Below, one piece after another: positions 651 to 20,006 of a stretch of 20,006 bases of DNA. The first letter of the stretch is position 1. Each line of letters begins with the position of its first letter. This stretch comes from a virus, in IMG/VR virus record IMGVR_UViG_3300030580_000047, positions 1 to 20,006 of that record; one strand, given 5' to 3'. The notes below the pieces were generated by a model that ran no database searches, had not been told where the DNA came from, and saw only the letters and a program-made list of their open reading frames with translations. The translations under genes and the position numbers were made by a program.

Positions 651-688
651 GTCAGAAGCATATCGCTTCCGGCTCTCCATCACTTCCG

Positions 689-719
689 AAGCCCCGCCCG
701 GACACCCCGGCGGGGCTTT
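689..719 (+). terminator. Hairpin terminator-like element upstream of the capsid gene
   Basis: AAGCCCCGCC (689-698) pairs perfectly with GGCGGGGCTT (709-718) around a 10-base loop, and a short T run follows on the + strand. It would end + strand transcription before the capsid gene, or act as a 5' stabilising stem for the capsid message. On the - strand it lies just upstream of the HNH gene, so that gene must either start within about 40 bp or be read through the stem. Confidence 0.7.
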
Positions 720-3121: not shown

Positions 3122-3123
3122 CC

Positions 3124-3549
3124 GTGGCGGCGAAGCGCAAGGCGATGTCGGCGGCGACGAAGGCCAAGATTTCGAAGGCCTTGAAGGGCAAGCACCACAA
3201 GCACCACGGGCACAGGGAGTCCGCAGCAACTCGCGCGAAGATCGCTGCGAAGCTCAAGGCCCGCTATGCGGAGCGCAAGAAGGCACGGCTGGCGCGGCTC
3301 GCCGCGGCGAAGGCCGCGCGCGCGAAGGCCAGGGCTGCGAAGACCGCCGCCCGCAAGGCCGCGCGGAAGACCGCCCGGAAGTCGCGTCACCGTGTGCTGC
3401 GGGCCGGCCAGCGCTCACCGCTCACCGCTGCCCAGCGGCAGAACCGGTCCGAGATGGGCTACCGGCCGAAGCGCCGCGTGGGTTCGCGGGTCGGCAACTC
3501 CTCGCCTCGGTCTCGCCGGATCCGGCGGATTCATCACCACGTGAGGTAG
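3124..3549 (+). CDS. Very basic Lys/Arg/Ala-rich protein with NUMOD3-like repeats
   Basis: A 141-residue protein. Residues about 8-23 (MSAATKAKISKALKGK) closely match the NUMOD3 DNA-binding pattern known from homing endonucleases (S-x-E-T-K-x-K-I-S-x-A-x-K-G-K). A second, weaker copy follows (ESAATRAKIAAKLKAR), separated by a His/Lys stretch (HHKHHGH). The middle is an histone-H1-like run of Ala/Lys/Arg (about 45-90), and the end is Arg-rich (RRIRRIHHH). No nuclease domain is visible. The GTG at 3124, with GAGGGG six bases upstream, is chosen over in-frame starts inside the connector gene. The position fits where a stopper gene would be expected, so it may be a DNA-binding neck component or a DNA-condensing head protein; neither is shown. 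Confidence 0.8.
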   Translation: MAAKRKAMSAATKAKISKALKGKHHKHHGHRESAATRAKIAAKLKARYAERKKARLARLAAAKAARAKARAAKTAARKAARKTARKSRHRVLRAGQRSPLTAAQRQNRSEMGYRPKRRVGSRVGNSSPRSRRIRRIHHHVR

Positions 3550-5522: not shown

Positions 5523-5588
5523 GGGCTGCCCCGGTGGCAGCCCCTCCAACTCCCCGGTTGCGCGCGTCGGGCGTCGCCGCAACCGGGG
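5523..5588 (+). terminator. Two successive hairpins after the major tail gene
   Basis: First stem: GGGCTGCC (5523-5530) with GGCAGCCC (5536-5543). Second stem: CCCCGGTTGCG (5552-5562) with CGCAACCGGGG (5578-5588), eleven bp. Neither has a T run. They occupy most of the 114 bp between the tail tube gene and the chaperone gene and could cut expression of downstream genes after the abundantly needed tube protein. Confidence 0.6.
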
Positions 5589-5629
5589 CCCAACACCCAC
5601 GCCCGCAACGCCCCGACCAGGAGACCCCC

Positions 5630-6061
5630 ATGACCGCCAAGAAGACCCCCGAAACACCCCGGGGCACCGGCTACACCGAGCGCTTCAAGCTCGTCGACTT
5701 CTCCCACCTCTCCGCAGGCGGATCCATCCTGATCCGCAACCCCAAGCTCCTGCCCCCCGAGAAGATCGAAGCCGTCGTCGCCGCCAGCGAATCCCCCGAC
5801 CGCGCGGTACAGCGCGCCGCCATGACCGAAGTGCTGGTCGAAGTCATCGTCGCGTGGCGCAACATCTACCCCGCCACCGAAGACCTCGCCGACATCGACC
5901 TCGACGACGACAGCGACCTCGAAGCACTCATGGCGCGCCTGGAATCCCGCGAGCAGGCCCCCCTCGGCAAGCCGTCACTGGAGACCGTCGCACAGCTGCC
6001 GCTCGCGATCACGAACCGCTTGGCGGAGGAGTTCAAGGCCGGCGGGGCAAACCCCACGTAG
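5630..6061 (+). CDS. Tail assembly chaperone, short form (gpG-like)
   Basis: A 143-residue protein made by normal decoding to the TAG at 6059-6061. It is mostly helical and acidic (ADIDLDDDSDLEALMARLE), with the placement and length typical of the first chaperone, which binds the tape measure protein before tube polymerisation. Start: ATG at 5630 with AGGAG (5619-5623) six bases upstream. The reading frame can be left near its end by a -1 slip to give the longer form. Confidence 0.85.
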   Translation: MTAKKTPETPRGTGYTERFKLVDFSHLSAGGSILIRNPKLLPPEKIEAVVAASESPDRAVQRAAMTEVLVEVIVAWRNIYPATEDLADIDLDDDSDLEALMARLESREQAPLGKPSLETVAQLPLAITNRLAEEFKAGGANPT

Positions 6062-6312
6062 GCCCCGGTGATCCCTATTTCGAGGACGTGCTGCTCCCGG
6101 TGGAGAGCATCCTCGGCGGGACCTGGGGCCACTCCGAACCTGCGCCCGCGGAGTGGCGCGACTTCGTGCTCATGAAGCGCATGCGCTGGTCGTGGCAGCA
6201 GTTGGAGGCCACTCCCTACTATGTGCGCCGCTACAGCATGGACTTCCTCGGCCTGATCGCGGAGGCCGAGGAGAGGGAGCGCAAGAAGACCGAGAAGAAG
6301 TCGCGGAAGTAG
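5630..6312 (+). CDS. Tail assembly chaperone, frameshifted form (gpGT-like)
   Basis: Read 5630-6055, then re-read 6055 and continue to the TAG at 6310-6312, giving about 227 residues. The extension begins HVGPGDPYFEDVLLPVE and contains the recurring chaperone pattern EWRDFVLMKRMRWSWQQLE and YYVRRYSMDFLGLIAEAEE, ending in a Lys-rich tail. No ribosome site or start belongs to this part by itself, and its frame runs back as non-coding sequence through the tail gene, so it must be reached by the slip. Confidence 0.85.
6049..6055 (+). other. Programmed -1 ribosomal frameshift site A_AAC_CCC
   Basis: Within ...GGG GCA AAC CCC ACG TAG, the bases A AAC CCC fit X_XXY_YYZ exactly. After a -1 slip the Asn tRNA re-pairs with AAA and the Pro tRNA with CCC. 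The zero-frame stop is two codons downstream, and the -1 frame is open to 6312. This is the conserved arrangement for producing the gpGT-like chaperone in long-tailed phages. Confidence 0.85.
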
Positions 6313-6820: not shown

Positions 6821-9800
6821 GTGGGCGATTCCCTGATCCCCCCGATCATGATCGAGCTGGGCGGCACGGCGGCCGACGCCATCAAGGCCATCGCCAGCAC
6901 CGTCGCAGCGTTCGAGGACCTCACCGAGGCCGCTGCGGCGATGGGCGATGCCGTCGACGAGGTCTTCGCGTCCCTCGACGCGGGCGTCGAAAGCTTCACG
7001 GCCATCAAGACTGCGGCGAAGTCCGCAAGCACCTCCATGCGGTCGATGGCCAAGTCCACGGCCTCTGTCTCCGCTGCCGCCGATGATGCCGCTGAGGCGA
7101 TCGACACGGGTTTCGCTGCGATGGCCGAGGCGTCGGCGTCGATGGCGGAGGCCGTCAAGGCTGCCTCCGTCGAGGCGTCCGAGGGCCTGTCCGCGATGGG
7201 TGAGGAAGCCAAGGCTGCAGGCCTGTCCATGGGCGCCATGGGCGAGGACATCGTCGCGTCGATGCGCGAGGCCGCTGCTGCGATCGCCGAGGCCGCCGGT
7301 GAGATCAAGGCCGCTGCGGTGGAGATGGGCGAGTCCGTCGAGGCTTCGTCCGCGGAGGCGGGTGAGGCGACCGAAGGGCTCGGGTCCAAGTTCCTGGGCC
7401 TGGGTGAGATGTCGGGCCTGCTCAAGGCTGCGGTGCCGCTGTCGATCGCGGCGATCGGCTACGAGTCGGTCAAGGCCGCGACGACGTTCCAGTCGAGCAC
7501 GACGCGGCTGGTCACCTCCGCCGGGGAGATCTCCTCGAACCTGGGGGTGGTCCGCTCGGGGATGCTGAGCATGGCCGGGCAGGTCGGCGTGTCTGCGGAC
7601 GACCTGTCGCAGGCCATGTACTACGTCGAGGCCGCCGGTTTCCACGCCGCGGACGGCCTGACGGTCCTCAAAGCGGCTGCGCAGGGCGCGGCGGCGGAGG
7701 GCGCGGACACCACGACCGTTGCGCAGGCGCTGACGGACGTCCTCGTCGACTACCACAAGCCCGCGCAGGACGCCGCGACCGTGACGTCGGAGATGATCGC
7801 GGCTGTTGCGGGCGGCAAGACGAACCTGCAGGACTTCTCGGGGGCGTTCGCGAGCATCGTGCCTGCGGCGTCGGCGGCGGGGATCTCCTTCGCGGACGTG
7901 GCGGCTGCGCTGGCGGAGATGACCAACCACGGCTTCCCTGCCGCCCGGGCCTCCCAGAACCTGGCCCAGGCGCTGCGTTCGCTGCTGACTCCGACGGCGG
8001 TCATGCAGGGCGCGTTCACGAAGTACGGGCTGTCCAGTGACGTCCTGAAGGAGAAGCTGGCCGGGCCGAACGGGTTGACGGACGGCATGGAGTACGTGTC
8101 GCAGATCGCCTCGAAGTCCGCGAAGGAGGGCACGCCCGAGTTCGCGAGCATCCTCAAGCAGCTGATGGGTACCGCGCCCGGCGCGAACGCGGCGCTGGCG
8201 ACGACGGGCGAAAACTTCCAGGCCACCGCCAACGGCATCATCGCGGTCAACAAGGCGTCAGCCGATGCGCAGGGCAACGTGCGCGGCTTCGCACTGGTGC
8301 AGAAAAACCTGGGCCAGCAGCTCAAGGACTTGAAGGCCGGTTTCGATGCGCTGCTGATCCGCATCGGCGACGGGCTCATCCCGGTGTTCTCGGAGTTCAT
8401 CGGCTACGTCATGTCCCACGGGATCCCGGCGCTCCACACTCTGGGAACGGCCCTGTCGGGTATCGCGTCGGGGTTCTCGGGTGCGGCGGGCAAGGCACCG
8501 GCACCGGCGCAGGGCCTCAATGCGCGGATGCAGGAGGGGGGCGGTGCACTGCCTGCGCCGCCGCCGTTGACGGCGTGGCAGCAGGTCGGGCAGACGTTGA
8601 AGACCGTCGCGGACGATGTCGGCAAGTTTGTGGAGGCCGCGGCCCGTCTCGGGGCGGTGCTGGTGAAGACGGTGGGCCCGGCGCTGGCGACGCTGGTGGG
8701 TGGCGCGGTTCTGGGTGCGCTGTCGATTTTGGGGTCGATCCTGTCGACGGCGGTGACTCCGGCGTTGAAGGGTCTGGCGGATTTCGCCGAGAAGCACAAG
8801 ACGATCATGGATTGGATCGTCGGCGCGTTCCTCGCGCCACTGGCGCTGCGGCTCGCAGCGCTCGCGGTCATCAAGCCGATCATGGCGATCGCGGGGCTCG
8901 CGAAGAGCATCATCACGTTCCCGATCAACCAGAGCAAGCAGATCGTGACGTCCGTGAAGAGCATGTGGGCGAACCTCTTCGGCGCGGAGGCGACCAAGGA
9001 CGCCGAGGGCAAGGCCATCCCCGCGATCGAAGGGTTCTTCCCCAAGCTGCAGCGGATCTTCAAGAGCGGTTTCGCGAGCATCAAGTCCGGCTGGGCGAAG
9101 CTCTTCGGCACGCAGGAAATCAAGGACGACGAAGGCAACGTCACCGGCGTAGTGCAGGGCTTCTTCCCCAAGCTGCTCAAGAAGTTCAAGTCCGGGTGGA
9201 CGTCGCTCGCCGGCGCCGCGAAGACCGGGTGGATGAAGGTCTTCGCCACCCAGGACGTCACCGATGAAGAGGGCAACGTCATCGGCCAGATCCAGGGCTT
9301 CTTCCCGAAGATCGGGAAGCTGTTCAAGTCTGGCTTTACGTCCCTGGTCGGCGCTGTGAAGTCCGGCTGGGGAAAGGTCTTCGGCGCGGAGGAGGCCACC
9401 GACGAAGAAGGCAACGTCATCCCCGCGGTCAAGGGCTTCTTCCCGAAGATCCTCGACAAGATGCAGACGGGCTGGGATTCGCTCGTCCAGGGGGCCCAGT
9501 CGGGGTGGGCTGCGATCTTCGGCGCGGAGGCGATGGAGGACGAGGAAGGCAACGCGGTCCCGGCGGTCGAGGGCCTGTTCTCGAAGCTGGGCGGCACCTT
9601 CAAGACCGGCTGGTCGACGCTTTCGGGCGGCGCGAAGACCGCGTGGCAGGGCATCTTGAACATGAAGAACGCCATCACCGGCCTGAAGGACGCCGAGGAA
9701 CTCGCCGAGGGCGCGACCGAGGGCGAAGCAGTTGCGACGGGCGAACTCGACGTCGCGATGGACGCCAACCCCATCGGGCTGATCGTCATCGCGATCGGTT

Positions 9801-10600
9801 TGCTGGTGATCGCTTTCCTGTATTGCTGGGACCATTTCAAGGGCTTCCGTGATTTCTGGATCGCCGCCTGGGGCCTGATCCAGGACGCGGCGAAGGAAGC
9901 CTGGAAGTTGATCCAGGACGCCTTCAACGGGATCGCGAAGGCAGCGGAGTGGCTCTGGAACAACGCGATCATGCCAGCGGTCCACGGCATCGAAAACGCG
10001 TTCACGTCGCTAGTCCACGGGGCGTCGCAGGCCTGGTCCGACATCGTCAGCGCGGGCGAGAAAGCCGCGTCGTGGCTGGCCGGGCTGCCGGGCCGGATCC
10101 TCGGCTGGTTCAACGACGCCGGGTCGTGGCTCTACAACGCAGGCGTTTCGATCATCGAGGGCCTGTGGAACGGCATCCAGTCGATGGGCTCGTGGATCGC
10201 CGGGGCGATCATGGGGCTGATCAAGGACGTGGTCCCGGGTCCGGTCCTGAAGATCCTGGGGATCAACTCGCCGTCGAAGGTGTTCCACGAGATCGGCCTC
10301 GGCGTGACCGAGGGCCTCGTCAACGGCCTGATCGCGGGCGGCCCGAGCACGGCAGCCGCCTCCACACAGATGGCGAAGGGCGTCATCGCCGCCGGGTCGC
10401 GGGCCATGGCCGGATCCCGGGCCCTGGCCATGGCCGGCGGTGGCAGCACCGCCGGCGGTGGCAGCGGCACGGTCTACAACGTGACGGTCAACGTCGCGGG
10501 CACGGTGACGTCGGAGAAAAACTTGCGGGATCAGATCCAGAGGCAGTTCTTGCAGCTGGGTATGCGCAACTCTCAGACGTACCAGCCGTACCGGCGCTGA
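6821..10600 (+). CDS. Tape measure protein
   Basis: A 1259-residue protein, the longest in the window, right after the chaperones. It sets tail length and ends up inside the tube. Residues 1-190 are an Ala-rich heptad-like helix. About 220-395 is a TP901-type tape measure core (GMLSMAGQVGVSADDLSQAM, AALAEMTNHGFPAARASQNL). About 615-700 is hydrophobic. Residues 716-941 hold five tandem repeats. About 983-1003 (NPIGLIVIAIGLLVIAFLYCW) is a clear membrane-type helix. The C-terminal part has INSPSKVFHEIG (from 1148) and GLVNGL, the usual tape measure tail motif. Start: GTG at 6821. By the usual rule of thumb of about 1.5 angstrom per residue, a tail of roughly 190 nm is expected. Confidence 0.93.
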   Translation: MGDSLIPPIMIELGGTAADAIKAIASTVAAFEDLTEAAAAMGDAVDEVFASLDAGVESFTAIKTAAKSASTSMRSMAKSTASVSAAADDAAEAIDTGFAAMAEASASMAEAVKAASVEASEGLSAMGEEAKAAGLSMGAMGEDIVASMREAAAAIAEAAGEIKAAAVEMGESVEASSAEAGEATEGLGSKFLGLGEMSGLLKAAVPLSIAAIGYESVKAATTFQSSTTRLVTSAGEISSNLGVVRSGMLSMAGQVGVSADDLSQAMYYVEAAGFHAADGLTVLKAAAQGAAAEGADTTTVAQALTDVLVDYHKPAQDAATVTSEMIAAVAGGKTNLQDFSGAFASIVPAASAAGISFADVAAALAEMTNHGFPAARASQNLAQALRSLLTPTAVMQGAFTKYGLSSDVLKEKLAGPNGLTDGMEYVSQIASKSAKEGTPEFASILKQLMGTAPGANAALATTGENFQATANGIIAVNKASADAQGNVRGFALVQKNLGQQLKDLKAGFDALLIRIGDGLIPVFSEFIGYVMSHGIPALHTLGTALSGIASGFSGAAGKAPAPAQGLNARMQEGGGALPAPPPLTAWQQVGQTLKTVADDVGKFVEAAARLGAVLVKTVGPALATLVGGAVLGALSILGSILSTAVTPALKGLADFAEKHKTIMDWIVGAFLAPLALRLAALAVIKPIMAIAGLAKSIITFPINQSKQIVTSVKSMWANLFGAEATKDAEGKAIPAIEGFFPKLQRIFKSGFASIKSGWAKLFGTQEIKDDEGNVTGVVQGFFPKLLKKFKSGWTSLAGAAKTGWMKVFATQDVTDEEGNVIGQIQGFFPKIGKLFKSGFTSLVGAVKSGWGKVFGAEEATDEEGNVIPAVKGFFPKILDKMQTGWDSLVQGAQSGWAAIFGAEAMEDEEGNAVPAVEGLFSKLGGTFKTGWSTLSGGAKTAWQGILNMKNAITGLKDAEELAEGATEGEAVATGELDVAMDANPIGLIVIAIGLLVIAFLYCWDHFKGFRDFWIAAWGLIQDAAKEAWKLIQDAFNGIAKAAEWLWNNAIMPAVHGIENAFTSLVHGASQAWSDIVSAGEKAASWLAGLPGRILGWFNDAGSWLYNAGVSIIEGLWNGIQSMGSWIAGAIMGLIKDVVPGPVLKILGINSPSKVFHEIGLGVTEGLVNGLIAGGPSTAAASTQMAKGVIAAGSRAMAGSRALAMAGGGSTAGGGSGTVYNVTVNVAGTVTSEKNLRDQIQRQFLQLGMRNSQTYQPYRR
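8966..9643 (+). repeat. Five tandem 42/46-residue repeats in the tape measure
   Basis: Measured from the conserved Trp codon, units begin at 8966, 9092, 9230, 9368 and 9506, and the next Trp is at 9644. The first unit is 126 bp and the next four are exactly 138 bp. Consensus: W-x-x-(L/V/I)-F-(G/A), then D-x-E-G-N, then GFFPK, then F-K-(S/T)-G-(F/W)-x-S-L. The last unit has GLFSK in place of GFFPK. Each unit pairs a turn-like DEEGN segment with amphipathic helices. Confidence 0.92.
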
Positions 10601-10643: not shown

Positions 10644-10669
10644 CCGGGCACTGGATCGGTGGTGCCCGG
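10644..10669 (+). promoter_or_regulatory. Hairpin ending on the start codon of the hub gene
   Basis: CCGGGCAC (10644-10651) pairs perfectly with GTGCCCGG (10662-10669); the last paired base is the G of the GTG start, and the ten-base loop contains the GGATCGGTG ribosome-site-like bases. It may influence start-site access; this is inference. Confidence 0.5.
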
Positions 10670-13600
10670 TGAGCAATCCGAAGTTGTCCACCTTGTCGGA
10701 CGCGTTCAACGAGGGCGCGATCAACGCCACCGTTTGGTCGAATGTCACGGGCGGCGCGGCCACCTTGGACGGCGTCAACGACTTGGTGGTCCTCGCGCAG
10801 CCGACGGTCAACGGCACCGTGAACACGTTCGGCAGCAACACGCTGTTCGACGCCACGTCCAGCAGCATCTACGCCGAGGTGACGCCCGTCGCGAACGGCA
10901 GCGGCCACACCCAGACCGCGATGGTGCTGGCGCTGAACACGGGCAACTCGGTTGCGATGCGGCTGTCCTCAGGTGCCTTCCAGCTCGTCCTGACGACGGC
11001 CGGGACAGGCGTGACGACAACGCTGGCGGCCTACGACCCGTCGGCGCACGGCTGGTGGCGGCTGCGCGAGGCGGCGGGCACGTTCTACGCGGATGCCTCG
11101 GCGGACGGCTACAACTGGGCGATCCTGGCGTCGACGACGTATTCGTGGTCGGCGGCCGGGGTGACGGTCGCGTTCCAGGCGTCGGCGTCGGCGACGGAGG
11201 TCGCGGGCAACACGGCGGCGCTCTCGCACGTCAACACGATGGTCGGCGGCCCCATCAACATCAACTGGCCGACGCTGGCGGATGACTGGGCACCGTACTG
11301 GAACAGCAACGGCGGCGACGCGCCGCTCGACAGGTACGTCAGCCTGGCGTCGCGCATCGAGGGGCAGAGCTCCGTCACCCGCGGCAAGCAGTACGAGCTC
11401 GACGAATGCAGAAGTGGCGAGGCCGCGGCGGTGCTCGCCAACACCGACGGCACCCTTGACCCGCTGAACGCGGCGGGCCCGTACTTCGGCCACATCATGC
11501 CGTACCAGCCGTGGCGGCGGCGGATGATGTGGCCGCCGTGCCGGAACCTGCTGTCGCAGGTCATGGCGACGGGCGGCGACAGCGGCGGCTTCGGTGCGGG
11601 CCTGATCCCGCAGGGCCAGGGCGGCATCGACGTCTTCAGTGCCACGGACTCCACGGGCGGCAGTATCGTCACCACGGCGTCGGCGTGGCAGGGCTCCAGC
11701 GTGTTCCAGTTCGCGGTCCCGTCGGGCACCGTGGCGCCGACGCGCATCGTGTACTCCCCGCAGGTCGGCGTCGACCTCACGGCGCAGTACGCGTTCCAGG
11801 CGCAGGTCCGCAACCTCACCGCCTCCACAACGCTGCACGTACAGGCGTTTCTGGGCTGGTACACGCCCGGTACGACGTCACCGACGAGCTACACCTACGG
11901 CCCGGCAGTGACCCTGACGGGCAGCACCACCGCAGCATGGTCGCAGGTCACCGTGACCGCGACACCGCCGTCGACGGCCGCGGGCATGGCGTACGGCGTC
12001 GCGGTGCAGACCACGGCGGCGGCGACGTGCACTATCCACGTCGACGGCATGCAGCTCGAGGAAGCCGCGACACCGTCGTCGTGGGCGTGTCCGGGTGTCT
12101 GGTACGGCGTGTGGGCGGGCGGCACCGAGAACTGGCCGGCGTCGTGGGACATGGGCGGCGTCTACGGCCTGGTGTCGGCGAGCGGCGTCGACATCATGGG
12201 CGCCCTGTCGCAGGTCACACTGACGGACCCGCTCACGCAGGAGATCACCTCGCGTGGCCCCCGGTTCCTGTACGAGCTGAACGACCCCTCGGGATCTGTA
12301 TCGGCCACCGACGCCACCGGCAACAACGCCGCCGCAGTCGTGGAGAACGGCAAATACGGGCCAGGGTCGCTGGTGTTCGGGACGTCGATCACGGCCGCGA
12401 ACACTGTGACAGGGGAGTATCTCGGCAGCACCGGCAGCGTCATGACGCTCGCCAACCTCGACCCCGGCACCACCGACATTGCGGGCGCCACATTCCTGAG
12501 CCTGAACAAGGCGGCCATCACCGGACCCACGAACCCGGCCCTGTGGACCCGCATGATCGCATTCCGGTACACGGGTCCGATGCCCACGTACCGGGCGTAC
12601 CTGTGGTCCGGCATGGACAGTCAGCGCTCGGGCGGCAATCCGTCCGGGTCGCAGATCTCCGTATACCTGGATTCGACCGGGGAACCGGCCGTGGTCATTC
12701 AGGGGCCCACTGGGGCGAACGAGAACGTCTACTTCGGTGGCGCGACGAACTGCGTCGACAGCAACTGGCATCTGCTGATTTTCGGTTATAACGCCGCAAC
12801 GGCTCAGATCATGGCCTCGCAGGACGGGGCAATCGGCGCGTACTACGGCAGTGTCAGCGCGGCCGTGCAGCCGACCGGCCTGATCGCCGACAATGTGGGC
12901 GGCTGGGTCGACGCAACGGTTGGCAACGGCACGGCCTACAACTACGCGGGCGACCTGTCGTACGTGGCGGAGTGGCCGGCCTTCGACACCACCACCGCGA
13001 CGATCACCGCCCTGTACTCGGCGTGGAAGTCGGCGTGCGCGGGCGAGTCGAGCGATGCGCGGTACGCCCGCATCCTGCGGTACGCCGGATACACGGGCAA
13101 CACCAGCTTGCAGGCGGGTGTGACGACGGACATGGGTCCGGCGACGGACATTTCCGGTTCGGATGCGCTGAGCTGCCTGCAGGCGTGCGTCGATGCGGAG
13201 AACGGCCAGCATTTCGTCGACACGAGCGGCACGATCACGTTCCAGTCGCGCGGTGCCCGCTACAACGCGACGACGCCGGTGTACGTCTTCGGTGAGGATG
13301 TCGCTGCTGGTGAGTGGCCGTACGAGGATGTGCAGCCGTCGCTGGACCCGACGCAGATCTCGAACATCGTTCAGGTCACCCAGAATTCGTCGTCGCAGGT
13401 TTTCACCGCGCAGGACGCCACCAGTCAGACCGACTACTTCCCGCGAACCCTGCAACGGACCATCAACGTCGTCAGCACCCTGGAATGCCAGGCCGCTGCG
13501 CAGTACCTGGTCAGCAGGTACAAGCAGCCCGCGACGCGGATCGCCAGCATGGTGCTGCACCCGTCGGCGAACCCGGCGATGTGGCCCGTCTGCCTCAGTC

Positions 13601-14103
13601 TCGAACTCGGGATGCGGATCACCGTCAACCGCAGGCCCCCGGCCGCACCCGCGTCCAGCATTCCGTGCTTCGTTGAGGCCATCAATATCGTCTGGGACGA
13701 TCAGGGCGACGCCACCTGGACGCTGCAGTGCTCGCCCGTGGACCTGACCGCCTACGGGATCTTCACGAGTTTCCACACGACGCTGCACTCCACCATCGCC
13801 GCGAACGCGAGCAGCATCACGATCAACGCCGGGGCCGACAACACCAATCTGGCTGCGGCGCAGCTCTCCACCGGGCAGCAGCTCGTGCTGTCGCAGAACC
13901 TCTCGACGCAGGAAACGGTGACGATCAAGGCGGTGGCTGCGACGTCACCGGGCTGGACGACGTGCGTCATCACCCTGGCCAGCAACACGCTCAACGCCCA
14001 CACGGCGGGCGACATCGTGTGCGAGCCGCTACCGGCCGGGGTCACCAACCCCGCGCAGTACGACGCCGTCGGACAGTTCGACAACGCCTGCTTCTCCTAC
14101 TAG
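10669..14103 (+). CDS. Large multidomain minor tail / tail hub protein
   Basis: A 1144-residue protein after the tape measure. Domains by eye: 1-200 a ConA-like jelly roll (DUF1349-like, with HGWWRLREAAGTFYADAS); about 215-290 the tail hub opening (RIEGQSSVTRGKQYELDE, then TDGTLDPLNAAGPYF), a recurring pattern in actinophage minor tail proteins; about 305-470 a carbohydrate-binding-like jelly roll ending HVDGMQLEEA; about 490-530 hub; about 535-785 a LamG-like insert; about 790-1030 hub C-terminal part (ARILRYAGYTG, FQSRGARYN, FVEAINIVWDD); 1037-1120 a beta module; and an end YDAVGQFDNACFSY. It probably joins tail-tip assembly to host surface binding. No separate distal tail gene is seen before it. 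Start: GTG at 10669, the only in-frame start after the stop at 10624. Confidence 0.85.
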   Translation: MSNPKLSTLSDAFNEGAINATVWSNVTGGAATLDGVNDLVVLAQPTVNGTVNTFGSNTLFDATSSSIYAEVTPVANGSGHTQTAMVLALNTGNSVAMRLSSGAFQLVLTTAGTGVTTTLAAYDPSAHGWWRLREAAGTFYADASADGYNWAILASTTYSWSAAGVTVAFQASASATEVAGNTAALSHVNTMVGGPININWPTLADDWAPYWNSNGGDAPLDRYVSLASRIEGQSSVTRGKQYELDECRSGEAAAVLANTDGTLDPLNAAGPYFGHIMPYQPWRRRMMWPPCRNLLSQVMATGGDSGGFGAGLIPQGQGGIDVFSATDSTGGSIVTTASAWQGSSVFQFAVPSGTVAPTRIVYSPQVGVDLTAQYAFQAQVRNLTASTTLHVQAFLGWYTPGTTSPTSYTYGPAVTLTGSTTAAWSQVTVTATPPSTAAGMAYGVAVQTTAAATCTIHVDGMQLEEAATPSSWACPGVWYGVWAGGTENWPASWDMGGVYGLVSASGVDIMGALSQVTLTDPLTQEITSRGPRFLYELNDPSGSVSATDATGNNAAAVVENGKYGPGSLVFGTSITAANTVTGEYLGSTGSVMTLANLDPGTTDIAGATFLSLNKAAITGPTNPALWTRMIAFRYTGPMPTYRAYLWSGMDSQRSGGNPSGSQISVYLDSTGEPAVVIQGPTGANENVYFGGATNCVDSNWHLLIFGYNAATAQIMASQDGAIGAYYGSVSAAVQPTGLIADNVGGWVDATVGNGTAYNYAGDLSYVAEWPAFDTTTATITALYSAWKSACAGESSDARYARILRYAGYTGNTSLQAGVTTDMGPATDISGSDALSCLQACVDAENGQHFVDTSGTITFQSRGARYNATTPVYVFGEDVAAGEWPYEDVQPSLDPTQISNIVQVTQNSSSQVFTAQDATSQTDYFPRTLQRTINVVSTLECQAAAQYLVSRYKQPATRIASMVLHPSANPAMWPVCLSLELGMRITVNRRPPAAPASSIPCFVEAINIVWDDQGDATWTLQCSPVDLTAYGIFTSFHTTLHSTIAANASSITINAGADNTNLAAAQLSTGQQLVLSQNLSTQETVTIKAVAATSPGWTTCVITLASNTLNAHTAGDIVCEPLPAGVTNPAQYDAVGQFDNACFSY

Positions 14104-14168: not shown

Positions 14169-14699
14169 TTGACGAACCTGCCCGTCCCCACACTGGCCAC
14201 CGAGATCCCCGGAAACCTCATCGCGTCCTCGGTGTGGAACGCCGTCGGACCCAACGGCCTCGGGTTCTCGCTGGCCGTGCCCGTCGCATCGCTGTACCAG
14301 ATCACCGTCCAGGGCATCCCGAACGCCTCTGCGACCGCCGTCAACATGGACGGCGAGAACAGCGACACCTACGGCGGGCATTCCGTCGTCACCAACACCT
14401 CGCGCTATGTCGGGCAGGTCCCCGGCTACTACCTCACCATCGCCACCGTCCTGTACGGCAGCTCCACCGTCGGCGTGCGCATCGCCTACGTCTACAAGAA
14501 CGGCGCCCTCATCGACGGCGCTTTCGGGGCCAGCCCCGGAAGCACCTACAGCAGCGCCACCGCCATCGCCGTCCCGTATCTCAACGGCACGACGGACTAC
14601 GTCGAAGCGTGGACCTACCAAACCGAAGGCGGCACCTTCAACACCAACACGAGCGCCGGACAGGCGAGCAGCTTGACCGTGTACTGGCTCCACAACTGA
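14169..14699 (+). CDS. Small tail fibre protein, C1q/TNF-like fold (probable)
   Basis: A 176-residue, all-beta protein. Segments such as LYQITVQGIP, GYYLTIATVLY, YVYKNGALIDG and DYVEAWTYQTEGG, ending LTVYWLHN, follow the C1q/TNF-like trimeric jelly-roll pattern ('kNG', 'aGDyV-e-w-yQ') found in phage fibre and receptor-binding proteins. It directly follows the hub gene. TTG start at 14169 is supported by a perfect AGGAGG (14157-14162) six bases upstream; no ATG or GTG fits. The receptor is unknown. Confidence 0.7.
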   Translation: MTNLPVPTLATEIPGNLIASSVWNAVGPNGLGFSLAVPVASLYQITVQGIPNASATAVNMDGENSDTYGGHSVVTNTSRYVGQVPGYYLTIATVLYGSSTVGVRIAYVYKNGALIDGAFGASPGSTYSSATAIAVPYLNGTTDYVEAWTYQTEGGTFNTNTSAGQASSLTVYWLHN

Positions 14700-14730: not shown

Positions 14731-15018
14731 TTGACCCCCGATTTCCTCGCGGAACTGGCCGGAGTGCTGAATTTCGGCGTCCTCGGCATCGTGTTCTTCC
14801 TGTTCGTCTCCGGGAAGCTCCATTCCCAGACCGAGTACGAGCAGCTGCTGCGGGACCTGGAGACGGAGCGCACCGCGCATGAGCACACCCGCGAAGCCCT
14901 GCGCATCGCCAACGCCCGTGGCGAATCTGGTGCGTTGGCGGCGGAGATTGTGGCCCGCGCGCTGGAAGGAGCGCACAGGCAAGGGGGTGACCCCCATGCG
15001 GCTTCCCTGGGGTCGTAG
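14731..15018 (+). CDS. Single-TM small membrane protein with coiled tail
   Basis: A 95-residue protein with one hydrophobic segment (about 9-27: LAGVLNFGVLGIVFFLFVS), then an acidic/basic heptad-rich tail (LLRDLETERTAHEHTREAL). TTG start with TAGGAGG (14717-14723) seven bases upstream. First member of a run of small membrane proteins ahead of the lytic enzymes, so it may be a holin-type or spanin-like component; the family is not recognised with confidence. Confidence 0.75.
   Translation: MTPDFLAELAGVLNFGVLGIVFFLFVSGKLHSQTEYEQLLRDLETERTAHEHTREALRIANARGESGALAAEIVARALEGAHRQGGDPHAASLGS
14983..14995 (+). promoter_or_regulatory. Ribosome site in a GGGGG-TGA-CCCCC hairpin
   Basis: The AAGGGGG ribosome site of the next gene can pair through GGGGG (14983-14987) with CCCCC (14991-14995) directly before the ATG at 14996. 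Translation of the overlapping upstream gene would open the stem, which would couple the two genes. Confidence 0.45.
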
Positions 15019-15214
15019 CGGCAAGCACTGCGGCGGGGCTGTGGATTCGGACGCGGACCGGTCGCTGAACCGGGCGAAGCGCGACGTCGCCGACCAGTCC
15101 GCGAAGCTCCGCGAGGAGCACGAGGTCATCGACCGGCTGAAGTCCATCCGCGCCCACAACGGTCTCGCGGACGCCTTGTACATCGCGCTGACGCGGAGGG
15201 GGGGTTCGCCGTGA
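14996..15214 (+). CDS. Small coiled-coil protein of the phage lysis region
   Basis: A 72-residue soluble, helical, charged protein (DRSLNRAKRDVADQSAKLRE, then IRAHNGLADALYIALTRRGG). The last third resembles the short 'NhfA-x-x-l' proteins that are common beside actinophage holins (DUF7620-like). ATG at 14996 overlaps the upstream gene by 23 bp, and the TGA overlaps the next GTG (GTGA). Confidence 0.65.
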   Translation: MRLPWGRSGKHCGGAVDSDADRSLNRAKRDVADQSAKLREEHEVIDRLKSIRAHNGLADALYIALTRRGGSP

Positions 15215-15594
15215 GTCCGTCGGTCCTGCAGGCCCTGGTCCGGGCCACGACGGTGGAGACGATCGTCGCGTTCTGTGCGGCGGTCGCGTTCATTGTCCTG
15301 TACTCGGTGATCGCGCCGTGGTGGCGGTCGCCGCTGGGCCGCAATGTGGTGGCGTTGGATGCGTCGATCTCGTTGACGCTGCTGCCGGGTGTGGTGCATC
15401 ACTTCTTCGGTGTCAGTACGGCGCTGGACCCGTATTTCGCCTGGTTCACGGTGTTGGCGTTCGGCGCGGTGCCGCTGGTGATCGCATGGCGGGCGTGGAT
15501 CTTGTGCCGCATCCAGTTCGGGGCGACGGGCGGCGACCGTCCAGCCGACGTGCTCGCACCGGCCGAGCCTCCCGTCCCGGCCGACCAGGAGTGA
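15211..15594 (+). CDS. Three-TM membrane protein (holin candidate)
   Basis: A 127-residue protein with hydrophobic segments at about 15-36, 48-66 and 75-98, and a Pro-rich cytoplasmic-type tail (PAEPPVPADQE). The motif WWRSPLGRNVVALDASISL between the first two segments is of a type frequent in actinophage membrane proteins next to lysins. Best holin candidate in the window because it has several membrane segments and a short charged tail. Start: GTG at 15211, after GGAGGGGGGG. Confidence 0.72.
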   Translation: MSPSVLQALVRATTVETIVAFCAAVAFIVLYSVIAPWWRSPLGRNVVALDASISLTLLPGVVHHFFGVSTALDPYFAWFTVLAFGAVPLVIAWRAWILCRIQFGATGGDRPADVLAPAEPPVPADQE

Positions 15595-15604
15595 GGGGAC
15601 CGTC

Positions 15605-15868
15605 GTGCACTGGCTCTCCCACTGGCTGGGTCTGGACAACGCATCCGGGGCGATCTACTTGTTTTGGTCCGGCATCGGCGCCGACCTGGGCTATCTCGCG
15701 ATCGTCGGGGGCCTGTACCGGCACCGGAACTGTGAAATTCAGGGCTGTCCCCGTCTGGGGCGGCGCACGTCCGCGGCGGGGCACCTGCTGTGTCGGAAGC
15801 ACCACCCCGACGGGCCGCTGACGGTGGAGGCCGCGCATGCCGCGCACCGGAAGGCGGCCGGGTCGTGA
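15605..15868 (+). CDS. One-TM protein with C-terminal Cys/His cluster
   Basis: An 87-residue protein. A hydrophobic region (about 15-40: GAIYLFWSGIGADLGYLAIV) is followed by NCEIQGCPRLGRR and LLCRKHHPDG, a C-x4-C...C-x2-H arrangement that could bind zinc. A similar Cys/His cluster beside a membrane helix recurs in actinophage small proteins. GTG start with AGGGG six bases upstream. Its stop overlaps the next GTG. Confidence 0.7.
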   Translation: MHWLSHWLGLDNASGAIYLFWSGIGADLGYLAIVGGLYRHRNCEIQGCPRLGRRTSAAGHLLCRKHHPDGPLTVEAAHAAHRKAAGS

Positions 15869-16176
15869 GGCGTCTTGGCGTGTGGCTGGCTGTCGCGGTG
15901 CTGCTGGTGGCGTACGACGTGTACCTGTTCGGCTGGCGGCTGGACGAGGTGCAGGGAAATGTTGAGGCGCAGTTCATCATCGTGACGCCGATGTTCCTGC
16001 TGAAGCACTGGTCGGATGTGCGTCGCGCACGCCGCGACAGGGCCGAGGTGCGCGCGCGCCTCGACGCGCAGGACGAGGCGATGGCGGAGACTCACCGCAA
16101 AGTGCACGAGCTGCACGCCCTTCACGTCGAGGGCCGCCCGGCGCGGCTCCAGAAACGCATCGTCCGCGACGACTGA
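15865..16176 (+). CDS. Small membrane protein with coiled-coil tail
   Basis: A 103-residue protein. A first hydrophobic segment at 5-24 (GVWLAVAVLLVAYDVYLFGW), a second weaker one at about 36-51, then a long charged helix (RRARRDRAEVRARLDAQDEA). GTG start inside the previous stop (GTGA), with GGAAGG upstream. Last of the four membrane proteins before the enzyme genes; function unknown. Confidence 0.7.
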   Translation: MRRLGVWLAVAVLLVAYDVYLFGWRLDEVQGNVEAQFIIVTPMFLLKHWSDVRRARRDRAEVRARLDAQDEAMAETHRKVHELHALHVEGRPARLQKRIVRDD

Positions 16177-16276: not shown

Positions 16277-17098
16277 GTGCTTGTCGACTTCGGCTCGCGC
16301 CTGCACCGCTACCCCACCACCTCGACGCGCCTGGGCCGCCATCACCTGGTCGACTCGCGTTCGCTGCGCTGGCTGCACCATCACGACGGCTCGGAACTGA
16401 AGCCGGCGGAGCACATGCCGAAGGTCCCCGTGCTGGACCAGGAGGACCTCCTGGAGCAGAACATCCACGTCGCCGAGCTGGTGCCGGGTGCGACGGACGT
16501 GGATGCGCTCGGCAGCTGCACGGGCAACGCCGGGACGGCCGCGGTCTCGGCCCTGCTGACTGCGGATCAGTGCGCTGCGGCGGGGCTGAATGTGACGTCG
16601 TCGTGGGCGGCGGAGGAGTGGGCGATCGAGTTGTACTCGCAGGCCACGAAGGACGACGACAATCCGGGGCAGTGGCCGCCGACGGATGCGGGCTCGTCGG
16701 GGCTTGGGGTTGCGCGGGCGTTGAAGGACCGGGGTCTGATCACGGGCTATGTGCATGCGACGAATGCCACCGGGTTCGCGAGCCTGCTGCAGTCCGGCAC
16801 CGTGATGGCCGGGATCCCCTGGTTCCAGGCCTGGTTCGATACGCAGCCGGGGCAGCTCCTGGACGAGGTGGCGGGCTGGGAGACATCGGGGCTGGCGGGT
16901 GGTCACGAGATTTGCGTGGTGGCGCTGGAGACGGTGGAGCAGGACTGGCTGGGCCGGGTTGTGCCGGAGAAGACGGTCGTGAAGTTCCAGAACTCGTGGA
17001 CGGCGCAGTGGTGCGACGGCGGGTTCGGCAGGTTCTCGCTGGCCCTGTACGCGCAGTTGCGGTCCCACATCGACCTGATCCAGCTCAAGGGGGCGTGA
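16277..17098 (+). CDS. Papain-like (C1-type) cysteine peptidase
   Basis: A 273-residue protein with the C1 triad in order: Cys81 in GSCTGNA, His210 in GGHEICVVALE, and Asn239 in FQNSWTAQWCDGGFGRF, matching the papain patterns GSCW/T-x-A, GH, and NSWG-x-x-W-x-x-x-G. The position of the papain oxyanion-hole Gln, six before the Cys, is Val75 here (DVDALGSC instead of DQGALGSC). No signal peptide or prodomain is obvious, so a cytosolic or virion role is possible. GTG start at 16277 with GGAGG (16267-16271) five bases upstream; ATG at 16249 is in another frame. Only two bases separate it from the next gene. Confidence 0.83.
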   Translation: MLVDFGSRLHRYPTTSTRLGRHHLVDSRSLRWLHHHDGSELKPAEHMPKVPVLDQEDLLEQNIHVAELVPGATDVDALGSCTGNAGTAAVSALLTADQCAAAGLNVTSSWAAEEWAIELYSQATKDDDNPGQWPPTDAGSSGLGVARALKDRGLITGYVHATNATGFASLLQSGTVMAGIPWFQAWFDTQPGQLLDEVAGWETSGLAGGHEICVVALETVEQDWLGRVVPEKTVVKFQNSWTAQWCDGGFGRFSLALYAQLRSHIDLIQLKGA

Positions 17099-17100
17099 CC

Positions 17101-17652
17101 GTGGCTCTCGCTGACCTGTCCCTGCTCGACGGCTACAAGACGGGCGGCTTCCCGGCCCGCTACCTGCCGGGCTACCGCGCGTTCTACAGCCCTGTCGATG
17201 ATGTTCATTCTGTTCTGCGGGATGTCGTCGCCTCTGCGCGGCATTCGCTGATCATCAGCATGTTCGGGTTCGATGATGACGAGCTGGCGGACATCATCAA
17301 GGCGAAGCTCGCGGACCCGTCCATCGTCGTGCAGTTGACGTTCGACTCCTCGCAGGCCGGTGGCGTGCACGAGCGCACGCTGCTGGCGCGGGAGGCGTAT
17401 CCGGCGTCGTCGGTGGCGATCGGCCGGTCCGAGGAAAATGCCATAGTCCACCTCAAGCTCGTGATCGTGGACGGCGAGATCGTGGTCACCGGCTCGACGA
17501 ACTGGTCGGCGTCCGGTGAGGGCCTGCAGGACAACGTGTGCGAGGTCATCCACGACCCGTACGTGGCTGCGGAGGCCCGGTCCCGGGTCGACGCGATCCA
17601 TCAGCACATCCTCGCCGCGGCCGCGAAGAAGGCGGCCCGCGCCCATGGATGA
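17101..17652 (+). CDS. Phospholipase D-family protein with one HKD motif (nuclease-like)
   Basis: A 183-residue protein. The HKD motif is complete: H117-x-K119-x4-D124 (VHLKLVIVDG), followed by GSTNWS (131-136), as in the single-HKD Nuc-type endonucleases, which dimerise to form one active site. The N-terminal strand-helix pattern (YSPVDDVHSVLRDVV, LIISMFGFDDDELADII) is the usual PLD half. No membrane segment. Substrate could be DNA, RNA or phospholipid; the length favours the Nuc nuclease branch. Start: GTG two bases after the peptidase stop, AAGGGGG upstream. Confidence 0.85.
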   Translation: MALADLSLLDGYKTGGFPARYLPGYRAFYSPVDDVHSVLRDVVASARHSLIISMFGFDDDELADIIKAKLADPSIVVQLTFDSSQAGGVHERTLLAREAYPASSVAIGRSEENAIVHLKLVIVDGEIVVTGSTNWSASGEGLQDNVCEVIHDPYVAAEARSRVDAIHQHILAAAAKKAARAHG

Positions 17653-17923
17653 CCTCTACCGCGAGCGCGCTCACCTGGTCGCGCACCTCGCAGCCCTGTA
17701 TCCGTCGCATATCGGCGTCGACCCGGCCGAGCCCGACTGGCCGGTGGTGTACGTCGACACCGGCGCGGGCCAGTTGAGTTGGCATCTGTCGACTGCTGAC
17801 CTGCCGCTGTTCGCGCATGTTCCGCGCGGTGACGCCGACTGGGACGGCCACACCACGGAGCAGAAGTATGCGCGCCTGGACAACCTGACGCGGACGATCG
17901 CGGCGAGAGGAGCAGCAGCATGA
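17645..17923 (+). CDS. Conserved small actinophage protein of unknown function
   Basis: A 92-residue protein. The core VVYVDTGAGQLSWHLSTADL, then LFAHVPRGDADWDGHTTEQKY, is a recognisable recurring pattern in Streptomyces and related phages, always small and of unknown role. Its ATG lies inside the preceding gene's last codons and its stop overlaps the next ATG, so it is coupled on both sides. No catalytic motif is clear. Confidence 0.8.
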   Translation: MDDLYRERAHLVAHLAALYPSHIGVDPAEPDWPVVYVDTGAGQLSWHLSTADLPLFAHVPRGDADWDGHTTEQKYARLDNLTRTIAARGAAA

Positions 17924-18711
17924 CGCGCACCATGTACGACAGCGTGTCCGCGGCTTCGATCCCCGCCGACGCCACGATGGTGGCCGGCTACCTCAACGGC
18001 GCGTACGCCTGGTCGTCCGAGGACTGGGCTCGGTTCCCGCACGCGGTGCACGTCACGGTGACCGTGAACACCAGCGCGGCGGCGGACGTTCTTGACGTCG
18101 AAAACGGCGACGCGTCGCCGGCCGAGGCGCCGGGGTGGATCGCCACACACCCGGGCGGCTCGATCTACTGCGACTCCTCGACATGGCCTGCGGTGAAGGC
18201 TGCGTTCGGCGGCCGTCCGCTGCCGCCGTTCTGGATCGCCGACTACAACGGCGACGCCTCAACGATCCCCACCGGCGCGGTGGCTGCTCAGTACGAGGAC
18301 GCCGGCCCGTACGACCTTTCCGTCTGTGCCGACTACTGGCCGGGCGTTGACCCGCTCCCGGAGGATGACATGCCGCTGAATGCTGCTGATGAGGCTGCGA
18401 TCAGGTCGATCGTGACTGCTGCGATCACCGCGAACCGTCCGATCGCGGTCGCGGACACGCTGTACTGGCTGGCGGCTGGTGTGACTGGTCAGCCGCCTGC
18501 GGGTGGTGTGGCTCCGGTGGATCTGCATTCGATCGCCGAGTTGCATGCGGCGCTGGTTGCTGGCCCGTCGGCGCAGCTCGCTGCCTTGTCGGCGCGGTTG
18601 GTGGCGGCGGAGGCTGCTCTGGCGGCGGTGGAGAAGGGCGAGCTGACTGCGGCGGAGGTGCAGGCTGCGGTTGCGGCGGCGCTGGCTGCGGCCGGGCATG
18701 TGGCGGCGTAG
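17920..18711 (+). CDS. Lysin candidate: DUF1906/GH25-like domain plus Ala-rich coiled coil
   Basis: A 263-residue protein. Residues 1-148 follow the DUF1906 (Rv2525c-like) glycoside-hydrolase pattern: VAGYLNGAYAW, DVLDVENGDASP (D and E of the strand-end acidic pair), IYCDSSTWPAV, FWIADYNGD, AAQYEDAGPYDLSV. Residues 150-263 are a linker and a very Ala-rich helix (from MPLNAADEAAIRSIV), with no recognised wall-binding domain. Proteins of this kind are often annotated as the endolysin of Streptomyces phages; wall cleavage is not shown here. ATG at 17920 with AGGAG seven bases upstream. Confidence 0.75.
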   Translation: MTRTMYDSVSAASIPADATMVAGYLNGAYAWSSEDWARFPHAVHVTVTVNTSAAADVLDVENGDASPAEAPGWIATHPGGSIYCDSSTWPAVKAAFGGRPLPPFWIADYNGDASTIPTGAVAAQYEDAGPYDLSVCADYWPGVDPLPEDDMPLNAADEAAIRSIVTAAITANRPIAVADTLYWLAAGVTGQPPAGGVAPVDLHSIAELHAALVAGPSAQLAALSARLVAAEAALAAVEKGELTAAEVQAAVAAALAAAGHVAA

Positions 18712-19269: not shown

Positions 19270-19668
19270 CTACTTGGCCGCGCGGCCCTTGAGTCGGCTG
19301 ATGATCGCGAGGATGGCGGTCTGGTCGGCCGGGTCGGTCACGCCGAGGTGTGTGAGGGCCCGCTTGTCGGTGAGCGGCTGCGGCCTCGGGTTGGCTGCGG
19401 CGGCTTCGTCCGAGATGACTCCGGCGCGGGCGAGCAGATCGAGGACGGGGATGCCGAGGGCTGCGGCCAGTGCTTCGAGGCTCTTGGCGTCGGGGATGAC
19501 CTGTCCGGCGAGCATGCGGCTGGCTGTGGCCTGGGACATGCCTGCGTCTTTGGCGAGTTGGGTCATGCCGCCGGTGCGGGGGCCTTCGAGGTCGTATCCG
19601 GCGTGCTTTGCGGCGTCGCGGATGTGGGTGCCGAATCGCGCGGCAAGGTCGTCACTGTCGGGGCTCAT
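19270..19668 (-). CDS. XRE-family HTH regulator (immunity-repressor-like)
   Basis: A 132-residue protein. The HTH lies at about 35-80 (MTQLAKDAGMSQATASRMLA, then LEALAAALGIPVLDLLARAG), the standard Cro/CI-type arrangement. The remaining C-terminal 50 residues have no LexA/CI peptidase motif, so RecA-triggered self-cleavage is not expected. Start: ATG at 19668, without a clear ribosome site; a leaderless transcript is possible. A dyad (19680-19697) lies just upstream. Its position at the - strand end of a phage late module fits a lysogeny regulator. Confidence 0.82.
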   Translation of the reverse strand: MSPDSDDLAARFGTHIRDAAKHAGYDLEGPRTGGMTQLAKDAGMSQATASRMLAGQVIPDAKSLEALAAALGIPVLDLLARAGVISDEAAAANPRPQPLTDKRALTHLGVTDPADQTAILAIISRLKGRAAK

Positions 19669-19679
19669 GCATCCACTCT

Positions 19680-19697
19680 AGCAAGCTATGTCTTGCT
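19680..19697 (-). promoter_or_regulatory. Putative operator dyad upstream of the repressor gene
   Basis: AGCAAG (19680-19685) and CTTGCT (19692-19697) form a perfect dyad with a six-base spacer, 12 bp upstream of the regulator's ATG. It is the least GC-rich bit of the surroundings, and it lies in the short 54-bp gap between two - strand regulator genes. Likely autoregulation site; no binding is shown. Confidence 0.5.
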
Positions 19698-19722
19698 TCG
19701 GAGGATGAATGCCGGAGGTCGG

Positions 19723-20006
19723 CTACTCGCTGTCCTGCTGGTCGTCGCCGATGACGACACGGCCGGGGATGGCACGGGCATTGGTGGCACTGCGTCGACC
19801 ACGGCCGGGGCGGTTGGCCAGCCAGCGTTCGATGGTCGACGGCTTCCAGGTGGGCGACTGGCCGTAGGTCTCGTCCGGCATCGGGAAGTCCTGGTCGCGG
19901 ACAGGTAGCTCTTCGGCGATGCGGGCGCGGGTGCGCTTGAGGTAGACGCGGATGGTGGGCACTTCGAGGCCGGTCAGCTCGTGGACGCCTGGGTAGCCGA
20001 TCAGCT
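19723..20006 (-). CDS. Winged-helix/excisionase-like DNA-binding protein (5' end outside window)
   Basis: At least 94 codons, open to the window edge. The visible part begins LIGYPGVHELTGLEVPTIRV, an HTH pattern of the MerR/excisionase type (GV-x-E-L-T-G, then TIRVYLKRTRAR). It continues DFPMPDETYG, PTWKPSTIERWLANRPGRGR: the 'W-x-p-s-T-I-x-x-W' clamp typical of phage and actinobacterial small HTH proteins. GTG at 19962 is an internal Val of the conserved segment, so the true start lies beyond 20006. Likely a regulator or directionality factor paired with the repressor. Confidence 0.75.
   Translation of the reverse strand, partial: LIGYPGVHELTGLEVPTIRVYLKRTRARIAEELPVRDQDFPMPDETYGQSPTWKPSTIERWLANRPGRGRRSATNARAIPGRVVIGDDQQDSE

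What the first reader, a model, noticed from the sequence alone, without database searches (positions are those of the whole stretch)
16277..17652. Adjacent papain-like peptidase and single-HKD PLD nuclease-like protein in a phage lysis region
Seen: two enzyme genes of unrelated classes separated by two bases, between four membrane-protein genes and a lysin candidate. The triad of a C1 peptidase (C81, H210, N239) and a full H-K-D motif are visible. Known: C1-type peptidases are common in bacteria but are not a standard lysis-cassette component; Nuc-type single-HKD proteins degrade nucleic acids. Inference: the pair could process host or virion proteins and DNA at late times, or be an anti-competitor/anti-defence unit released with the burst. 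No such system is known to me in this position.
Basis: partly seen in the sequence, partly recalled or inferred. Interest (0 to 1): 0.65.

Follow-up and report, generated by a model that had tools for sequence, protein, structure and literature searches.

The report
PLD enzyme among phage lysis genes
A phage of probable Streptomyces-like hosts carries, among the genes that burst its host, a papain-like protease already known from similar phages and, right beside it, a phospholipase-D-family enzyme that recurs in the lysis genes of many uncultured phages and of some Gram-negative prophages but has no established role there.

Summary
16277-17098 encodes a papain-like (C1) peptidase: Q55/C81/H210 are invariant in 56 homologues, N239 nearly so, and the predicted fold is confident. 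17101-17652 encodes a single-HKD PLD protein: catalytic residues intact in 139/139 homologues, Nuc/NucT-like fold. A holin lies upstream and a GH25-like lysin downstream.

"No such system is known" is wrong for the peptidase: homologues sit beside endolysins and holins in cultured phages (GMA2, Sixama, Morgana, Lilbeanie, Mufasa8, ZL12), and GMA2 Orf38 was published as a putative lysin.

The PLD half is the news. No cultured phage has a significant homologue. In 57 of 81 uncultured viral loci it lies within 3 kb of a lysin or papain-fold gene (random anchors 31±4), repeatedly beside this peptidase family. A separate clade sits in betaproteobacterial prophage cassettes with endolysins, spanins and lipases. 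The nearest precedent is a PLD-family gene in the putative lytic cassette of Wolbachia phage WO.

Best reading: two exchangeable accessory enzymes of a lysis cassette. The PLD's substrate is unresolved; its acidic core (pI 4.5, versus 9.3-9.7 for Nuc/NucT) leans slightly against a plain DNase.

The parts
16277..17098 (+). papain-like (C1-fold) cysteine peptidase, 273 aa, with about 20 extra residues between oxyanion Gln55 and catalytic Cys81; no signal peptide or TM segment detected
17101..17652 (+). single-HKD phospholipase-D-superfamily protein, 183 aa (PLDc_2); H117, K119, D124, G131, S132, N134
17645..17923 (+). small WDGH-domain protein (PF25311), overlaps the PLD and lysin genes; function unknown
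17920..18711 (+). endolysin candidate, GH25-like family; some relatives carry PG_binding_1
15211..15594 (+). putative holin, Phage_holin_2 (PF23778)
   Evidence: 1.7e-14; hydrophobic segments
15605..15868 (+). small protein with one weak hydrophobic segment, possible holin accessory
15865..16176 (+). small protein with an N-terminal hydrophobic segment, possible holin or antiholin
14731..15018 (+). small protein with an N-terminal hydrophobic segment, TTG start after aggagg
10669..14103 (+). tail protein (phrog_5313, 3.3e-104; weak match to Streptomyces phage minor tail proteins) upstream of the lysis genes
14169..14699 (+). virion structural protein (phrog_13989) marking the end of the tail module

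Best explanation
The two genes are accessory enzymes of the phage's late lysis cassette, which lies after the tail genes and includes a holin and a GH25-like endolysin. Both are made in the cytoplasm without a secretion signal and would reach the envelope when the holin opens the membrane. The papain-like peptidase most likely cuts peptide bonds in or around the cell wall (stem peptides, cross-bridges or wall/membrane proteins), as an auxiliary to the true endolysin. The PLD protein most likely works in the same step, hydrolysing a phosphodiester bond with its HKD active site (probably as a dimer, as single-HKD enzymes do). The favoured substrate is an envelope phosphodiester, such as membrane phospholipid or a wall-polymer linkage. 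Shown: location, intact active sites, folds, recurrent linkage to lysis genes. Inferred: lysis function, dimerisation, substrates. Confidence about 0.7 that both belong functionally to lysis, about 0.4 that the PLD substrate is in the envelope.
For: Peptidase: 80 viral homologue loci place it after tail genes (median -1.9 kb), with GH25, amidase, CHAP or LysM proteins about +1 kb and small hydrophobic proteins about +2 kb; six cultured phages have it beside lysins or holins; Orf38 of GMA2 was listed as a lysin (PMC4524720). PLD: lysin/papain-fold genes fall from 0.22 per kb next to the PLD to about 0.01 beyond 4 kb, 85 of 89 on the same strand; 57 of 81 loci have one within 3 kb against 30.9 (sd 3.6) for random anchors (maximum 41 in 500 draws); 60 of 81 have a called neighbour within 20 bp. 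A separate clade sits in prophage cassettes with GH19/GH24 endolysins, Rz-like spanins and class-3 lipases: L031, L033, L035, L041, L048, L055, L058, L063. C1-peptidase linkage is scattered over the PLD tree, 16 tips and 12 parsimony changes, so the pairing arose repeatedly. HKD residues intact in 139/139. Acidic core, pI 4.5 against 9.3-9.7 for the matched parts of Nuc/NucT. PLDs co-occur with lipid-active enzymes in three settings: class-3 lipase, LysB, and patatin in phage WO (PMC9203015).
Against: 23 of 81 PLD loci have no recognised lysin-type family within 4 kb; some lie by capsid, portal or terminase genes (L009, L197, L208, L232), and L006/L008 lie in the head genes. Closest solved relatives are nucleases. 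The acidic core may partly reflect the acidic proteome of these phages (neighbour median pI 5.7). Some peptidase homologues lie outside lysis regions: Shaeky in a tRNA cluster, mycobacteriophage Rinkes. Gordonia phages keep a separate LysA protease gene beside this peptidase, so it is not the only wall peptidase. Many PLD relatives are chromosomal with no prophage signs. No biochemical data exist.
Confidence: 0.5

Rival explanations
1. The PLD protein is a late Nuc-type endonuclease that degrades host or leftover nucleic acid before or during lysis (recycling, lower viscosity, or removal of competing DNA). The peptidase is still a lysis enzyme.
For: Nearest solved structures are the nucleases NucT and Nuc; NCBIfam NucT models match weakly (3.3e-10); the phage WO protein is described as a PLD-family endonuclease in a putative lytic cassette (PMC9203015); some loci lie beside head or terminase genes.
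Against: All 81 viral members are acidic, core median pI 4.7, while the NucT/Nuc cores are about 9.5; NucT matches are far below the curated cutoffs (39.8 against 297 bits); repeated linkage is to envelope enzymes rather than to DNA genes.
Confidence: 0.3
2. Neighbourhood by module shuffling only: the end of the tail module is a common insertion site, and both genes are passengers (morons) with unrelated functions.
For: Peptidase found outside lysis regions in Shaeky and Rinkes; PLD without a lysin-type neighbour in 23 of 81 loci; pairings change often.
Against: Linkage spans two bacterial phyla and separate PLD clades; same strand and tightly spaced genes; the PLD lies between holin candidates and endolysin with start/stop contact in L031 and L041.
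Confidence: 0.2
3. The peptidase and PLD form a dedicated two-enzyme effector pair (anti-competitor or anti-defence).
For: Direct adjacency in the window, L156/L014, L196, L213 and L119.
Against: Most members of each family occur without the other; both orders and variable distances; no PADLOC match for the peptidase and only weak DrmC-type matches for the PLD; no export signal.
Confidence: 0.05
4. The peptidase processes virion proteins (maturation protease) and the PLD is a virion component.
For: Both are late genes downstream of tail genes; fold alone does not exclude it.
Against: Position of the peptidase among holin and lysins in cultured phages; presence in only a small share of tailed phages, unlike maturation proteases.
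Confidence: 0.07

Closest known systems
Actinophage lysis-cassette 'cysteine protease' (Gordonia phages Sixama gp109, Morgana gp30, Lilbeanie gp40, GMA2 Orf38; Arthrobacter Mufasa8 gp26; Streptomyces ZL12 pZL12.46c)
   Same: homologous peptidase (27-44% identity), beside LysA genes and/or holin; catalytic residues kept in the three aligned (ZL12 with Gln for Asn)
   Different: no PLD gene in the annotated regions examined; GMA2 and Mufasa8 lack the extra residues between Gln and Cys, ZL12 has them
Wolbachia phage WO putative lytic cassette (patatin, holin-like, ankyrin protein; some variants with a PLD-family endonuclease)
   Same: single PLD-family gene in or next to a putative lytic cassette, next to a lipid-active enzyme
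   Different: sequence match not significant (24%, E 0.5); different partners; no peptidoglycan hydrolase
Nuc (Salmonella, 1byr) and NucT (Helicobacter, 6ehi) nucleases
   Same: single-HKD fold, H-x-K and GSxN motifs, among the best structural matches
   Different: basic and cellular; the phage family is acidic and carries its own motifs GFDD, DxxQ, HE, SGE, QxN
Mycobacteriophage LysA N5 domain (predicted papain-family peptidase)
   Same: papain-type peptidase proposed to act on peptidoglycan in actinophage lysis (PMC6116114)
   Different: a domain of LysA rather than a separate gene; homology to this family not tested here
DrmC of DISARM
   Same: PLD fold, weak profile match (6.5e-11)
   Different: far below the NCBIfam DrmC cutoff (38 against 133 bits); no other DISARM gene recognised beside it

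Membership tests
Peptidase family C1 (papain-like) | Gln-Cys-His-Asn catalytic residues in order | tested here: met
   Q55, C81, H210 invariant and N239 nearly invariant in 56 homologues
Peptidase family C1 (papain-like) | papain fold | tested here: met
   model pLDDT 92.3; Foldseek hits to Lpg2622, xylellain and cathepsins, E down to 1.2e-9
Peptidase family C1 (papain-like) | Pfam PF00112 above gathering score | tested here: inconclusive
   window protein gives no Pfam hit; relatives L141, L183, L159 and L213 pass
Peptidase family C1 (papain-like) | proteolytic activity | not testable with these tools
   needs an assay
PLD superfamily, single-HKD (Nuc-like) | H-x-K-x4-D and GSxN motif | tested here: met
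   H-x-K and GSxN in 139/139; D124 in 135/139
PLD superfamily, single-HKD (Nuc-like) | PLD fold | tested here: met
   NucT 6ehi E 6.8e-12 and Nuc 1byr 3.9e-10
PLD superfamily, single-HKD (Nuc-like) | homodimer forming the active site | not tested
   dimer prediction not run
NucT nuclease (NCBIfam equivalog) | score above curated cutoff | tested here: not met
   39.8 bits against 297
DISARM DrmC | score above curated cutoff, with other DISARM genes | tested here: not met
   38.1 bits against 133; no matches for the three neighbouring proteins tested
Phage lysis cassette | holin near a peptidoglycan hydrolase in the late region | tested here: met
   PF23778 holin at 15211 and GH25-like lysin candidate at 17920; the lysin call rests on family members, not on the window protein alone
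Phage lysis cassette | gene contributes to host lysis | not testable with these tools
   needs deletion or expression

The most novel reading that the evidence does not exclude
Phages of Actinobacteria and of Gram-negative bacteria have recruited, at least twice, a PLD-family phosphodiesterase as an additional lysis effector that attacks membrane lipids or wall phosphodiesters alongside holin and endolysin: an undescribed class of lysis enzyme.
Probability: 0.35. Interest if true: 0.75.

Novelty: new variant of a known kind. Interest (0 to 1): 0.55.

Why it matters
Lysis cassettes are thought to be built from holins, peptidoglycan hydrolases, spanins and, in phages of mycolic-acid bacteria, LysB. 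A PLD enzyme that recurs beside these genes, with a fully conserved active site and in separate clades, suggests an overlooked step of host break-open that can be tested directly, and a possible new source of envelope-degrading enzymes. The peptidase's repeated pairing with different endolysins also gives a tractable question: what does a second, papain-like enzyme add when a complete endolysin is already present?

Tried and rejected
Single-sequence scan of viral contigs with the window peptidase found nothing; an alignment was needed. PLD searches of cultured phages were negative with the window PLD, a betaproteobacterial PLD and a divergent viral PLD; at E<=1 only weak, non-significant hits to Wolbachia phage WO and two unannotated records. 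Plasmids negative. No fused peptidase-PLD ORF among fetched loci. GDPD as a substitute phosphodiesterase in peptidase loci lacking PLD: considered because ZL12 has one, but only ZL12 and two other loci have it, rejected as a pattern. Peptidase fused to a wall-binding domain: none found by Pfam in ten members, including the longest ORFs; several have only a proline-rich linker and a short C-terminal tail. DISARM/DrmC rejected. Profile comparison of the 17920 lysin family with the DUF1906 family failed; GH25 gave E 1.3e-4, probability 54. In 393 genomes of the Streptomyces genus group only the centre genome carried a PLD relative, so co-occurrence statistics there were not possible; 10 of 350 genomes of the Paraburkholderia family had one, but the returned loci were too short for context. 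A Pfam survey of neighbours in the 23 loci without a lysin family gave mostly capsid, portal and terminase genes, with single CHAP and LysM matches.

Full report
What is there. The window is one IMG/VR virus record of 20,006 bases. It runs from a probable major capsid gene (723-2105, judged by position, not scanned) through a very large ORF in the tape-measure position (6821-10600) and tail genes to a late region. The two ORFs are as described: 16277-17098 and 17101-17652, two bases apart, both with GTG starts. The next gene, a WDGH-domain protein, overlaps the PLD gene and the lysin candidate at 17920. The host is not known; the nearest PLD relative in a genome is in a Kitasatospora contig (72%) and the tail protein resembles Streptomyces phages weakly.

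The peptidase. It matches phrog_16701 'peptidase' and, as a profile, many solved papain-type enzymes, xylellain first. Over 56 homologues Gln55, Cys81 and His210 never vary and Asn239 is Gln in three. AlphaFold with 52 sequences gave pLDDT 92.3, and Foldseek found Lpg2622, xylellain and cathepsin/falcipain chains. A structural oddity: in 24 of 56 members, including the window and ZL12, Gln and Cys are 25-26 positions apart instead of the papain-like 6.

Its place in other phages. In cultured phages the homologue follows LysA genes and precedes a holin in Gordonia Sixama, Morgana and Lilbeanie; it lies between lysins and holin in GMA2, beside a holin in Mufasa8 and directly after tail genes in ZL12, with an Amidase_2 lysin two genes on. 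Dyson et al. listed GMA2 Orf38 among four putative lysins (PMC4524720); BetterKatz has a cysteine-protease-like endolysin gene next to a glycoside hydrolase (PMC4982276; homology to the window gene not tested); the mycobacteriophage LysA N5 domain is predicted papain-like (PMC6116114). So a papain-like lysis gene is a known kind. Exceptions exist: Shaeky and Rinkes.

The PLD protein. Pfam PLDc_2 4e-14; closest solved relatives NucT and Nuc. Among 139 homologues every one keeps H117, K119, G131, S132 and N134, and also G56, D59, D82, E91, I115, E140, Q143 and N145. It is absent from 50,697 phage records at E<=1e-5 but present in at least 184 viral contigs of IMG/VR and in 62 bacterial genome contigs.

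Linkage to lysis. Gene calls in the fetched loci were made by a simple codon-position method, so counts are approximate. Among the gene families most often found near the PLD were this C1 family, a second papain-like family, permuted C92/NlpC families, DUF1906, GH25 and the family of the window's lysin. They are concentrated within 3 kb and on the same strand. These families were chosen because they are common within 6 kb, so the distance gradient, not their presence, is the evidence. In betaproteobacterial prophages a separate PLD clade sits with GH19 or GH24 endolysins, Rz-like spanins and class-3 lipases. In L031 and L041 the PLD and endolysin genes are in direct contact. C1-peptidase association appears at 16 tips with 12 changes on the tree, that is, repeated pairing, not one inherited pair. 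The tree is an approximate one, midpoint-rooted. The window illustrates the exchange: its PLD is closest to the one in L156/L014 (72%), whose peptidase is of the short-spacing type, while its peptidase is closest to loci in which no PLD was found (L076, 55%).

Function. The evidence supports 'component of the late lysis module' better than any specific chemistry. The single-HKD fold is shared by nucleases and lipid enzymes. The acidic core speaks modestly against a DNA-binding nuclease, and co-occurrence with lipases, LysB and, in phage WO, patatin (PMC9203015) modestly for lipids. Neither is decisive. LysB is standard in phages of mycolic-acid bacteria, so its co-occurrence is weak evidence.

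Literature. Eight searches of open papers found no study of a PLD protein in a phage lysis cassette other than the phage WO remark. Subscription papers and most preprints were not searched.

Verdict. Observation confirmed; the interpretation of a novel pair is partly supported. The peptidase is a known kind of actinophage lysis gene, in a variant with an insertion. The PLD is a recurrent and largely unrecognised lysis-cassette gene that deserves an experiment.

Noticed in passing
window 84-700, - strand: Opposite to and just upstream of the capsid gene, the end of a long minus-strand ORF reads like an HNH homing endonuclease (WIWGGGVNAHGYGGF...LDHLCHGRDRSCPGG).
   Followed up: no
window 5534-6312, + strand: The gene before the tape measure ends at 6061 and an overlapping frame continues to 6312, as in programmed-frameshift tail assembly chaperones; the overlap holds GGCGGGGCAAACCCC.
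   Followed up: partly
window about 8900-9750, + strand: The tape-measure ORF has about five imperfect repeats of roughly 55 residues (GWxKxFGxxxxxDEEGNxxxxxxGFFPK).
   Followed up: partly
window 3076-3549; L006:7286-7573; L008:3594-4052: Very Lys/Arg-rich small protein inside the head-completion genes, at a similar position in two related PLD-bearing contigs; the window copy contains NUMOD3-like repeats.
   Followed up: no
window 16442-16516 (residues 56-80 of the peptidase): Extra residues between the oxyanion Gln and the catalytic Cys define a subfamily (24 of 56 sequences, spacing 25-26 against 6); unusual for papain-fold enzymes.
   Followed up: partly
L033:9507-10241, L035:9303-9887, L058:9405-10052: Class-3 lipase (in L033 below the Pfam cutoff) in betaproteobacterial prophage lysis cassettes near the PLD.
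   Followed up: partly
L156, L141, L159, L196, L213 (C1 peptidase C-termini): Short-spacing peptidases carry a proline-rich linker and a short C-terminal tail ending like WLAAKGL or YLTSQGV, perhaps a docking or wall-binding element.
   Followed up: partly
window 19270-19962, - strand: Two minus-strand genes after the lysis cassette, the first with a helix-turn-helix look (repressor-like).
   Followed up: no
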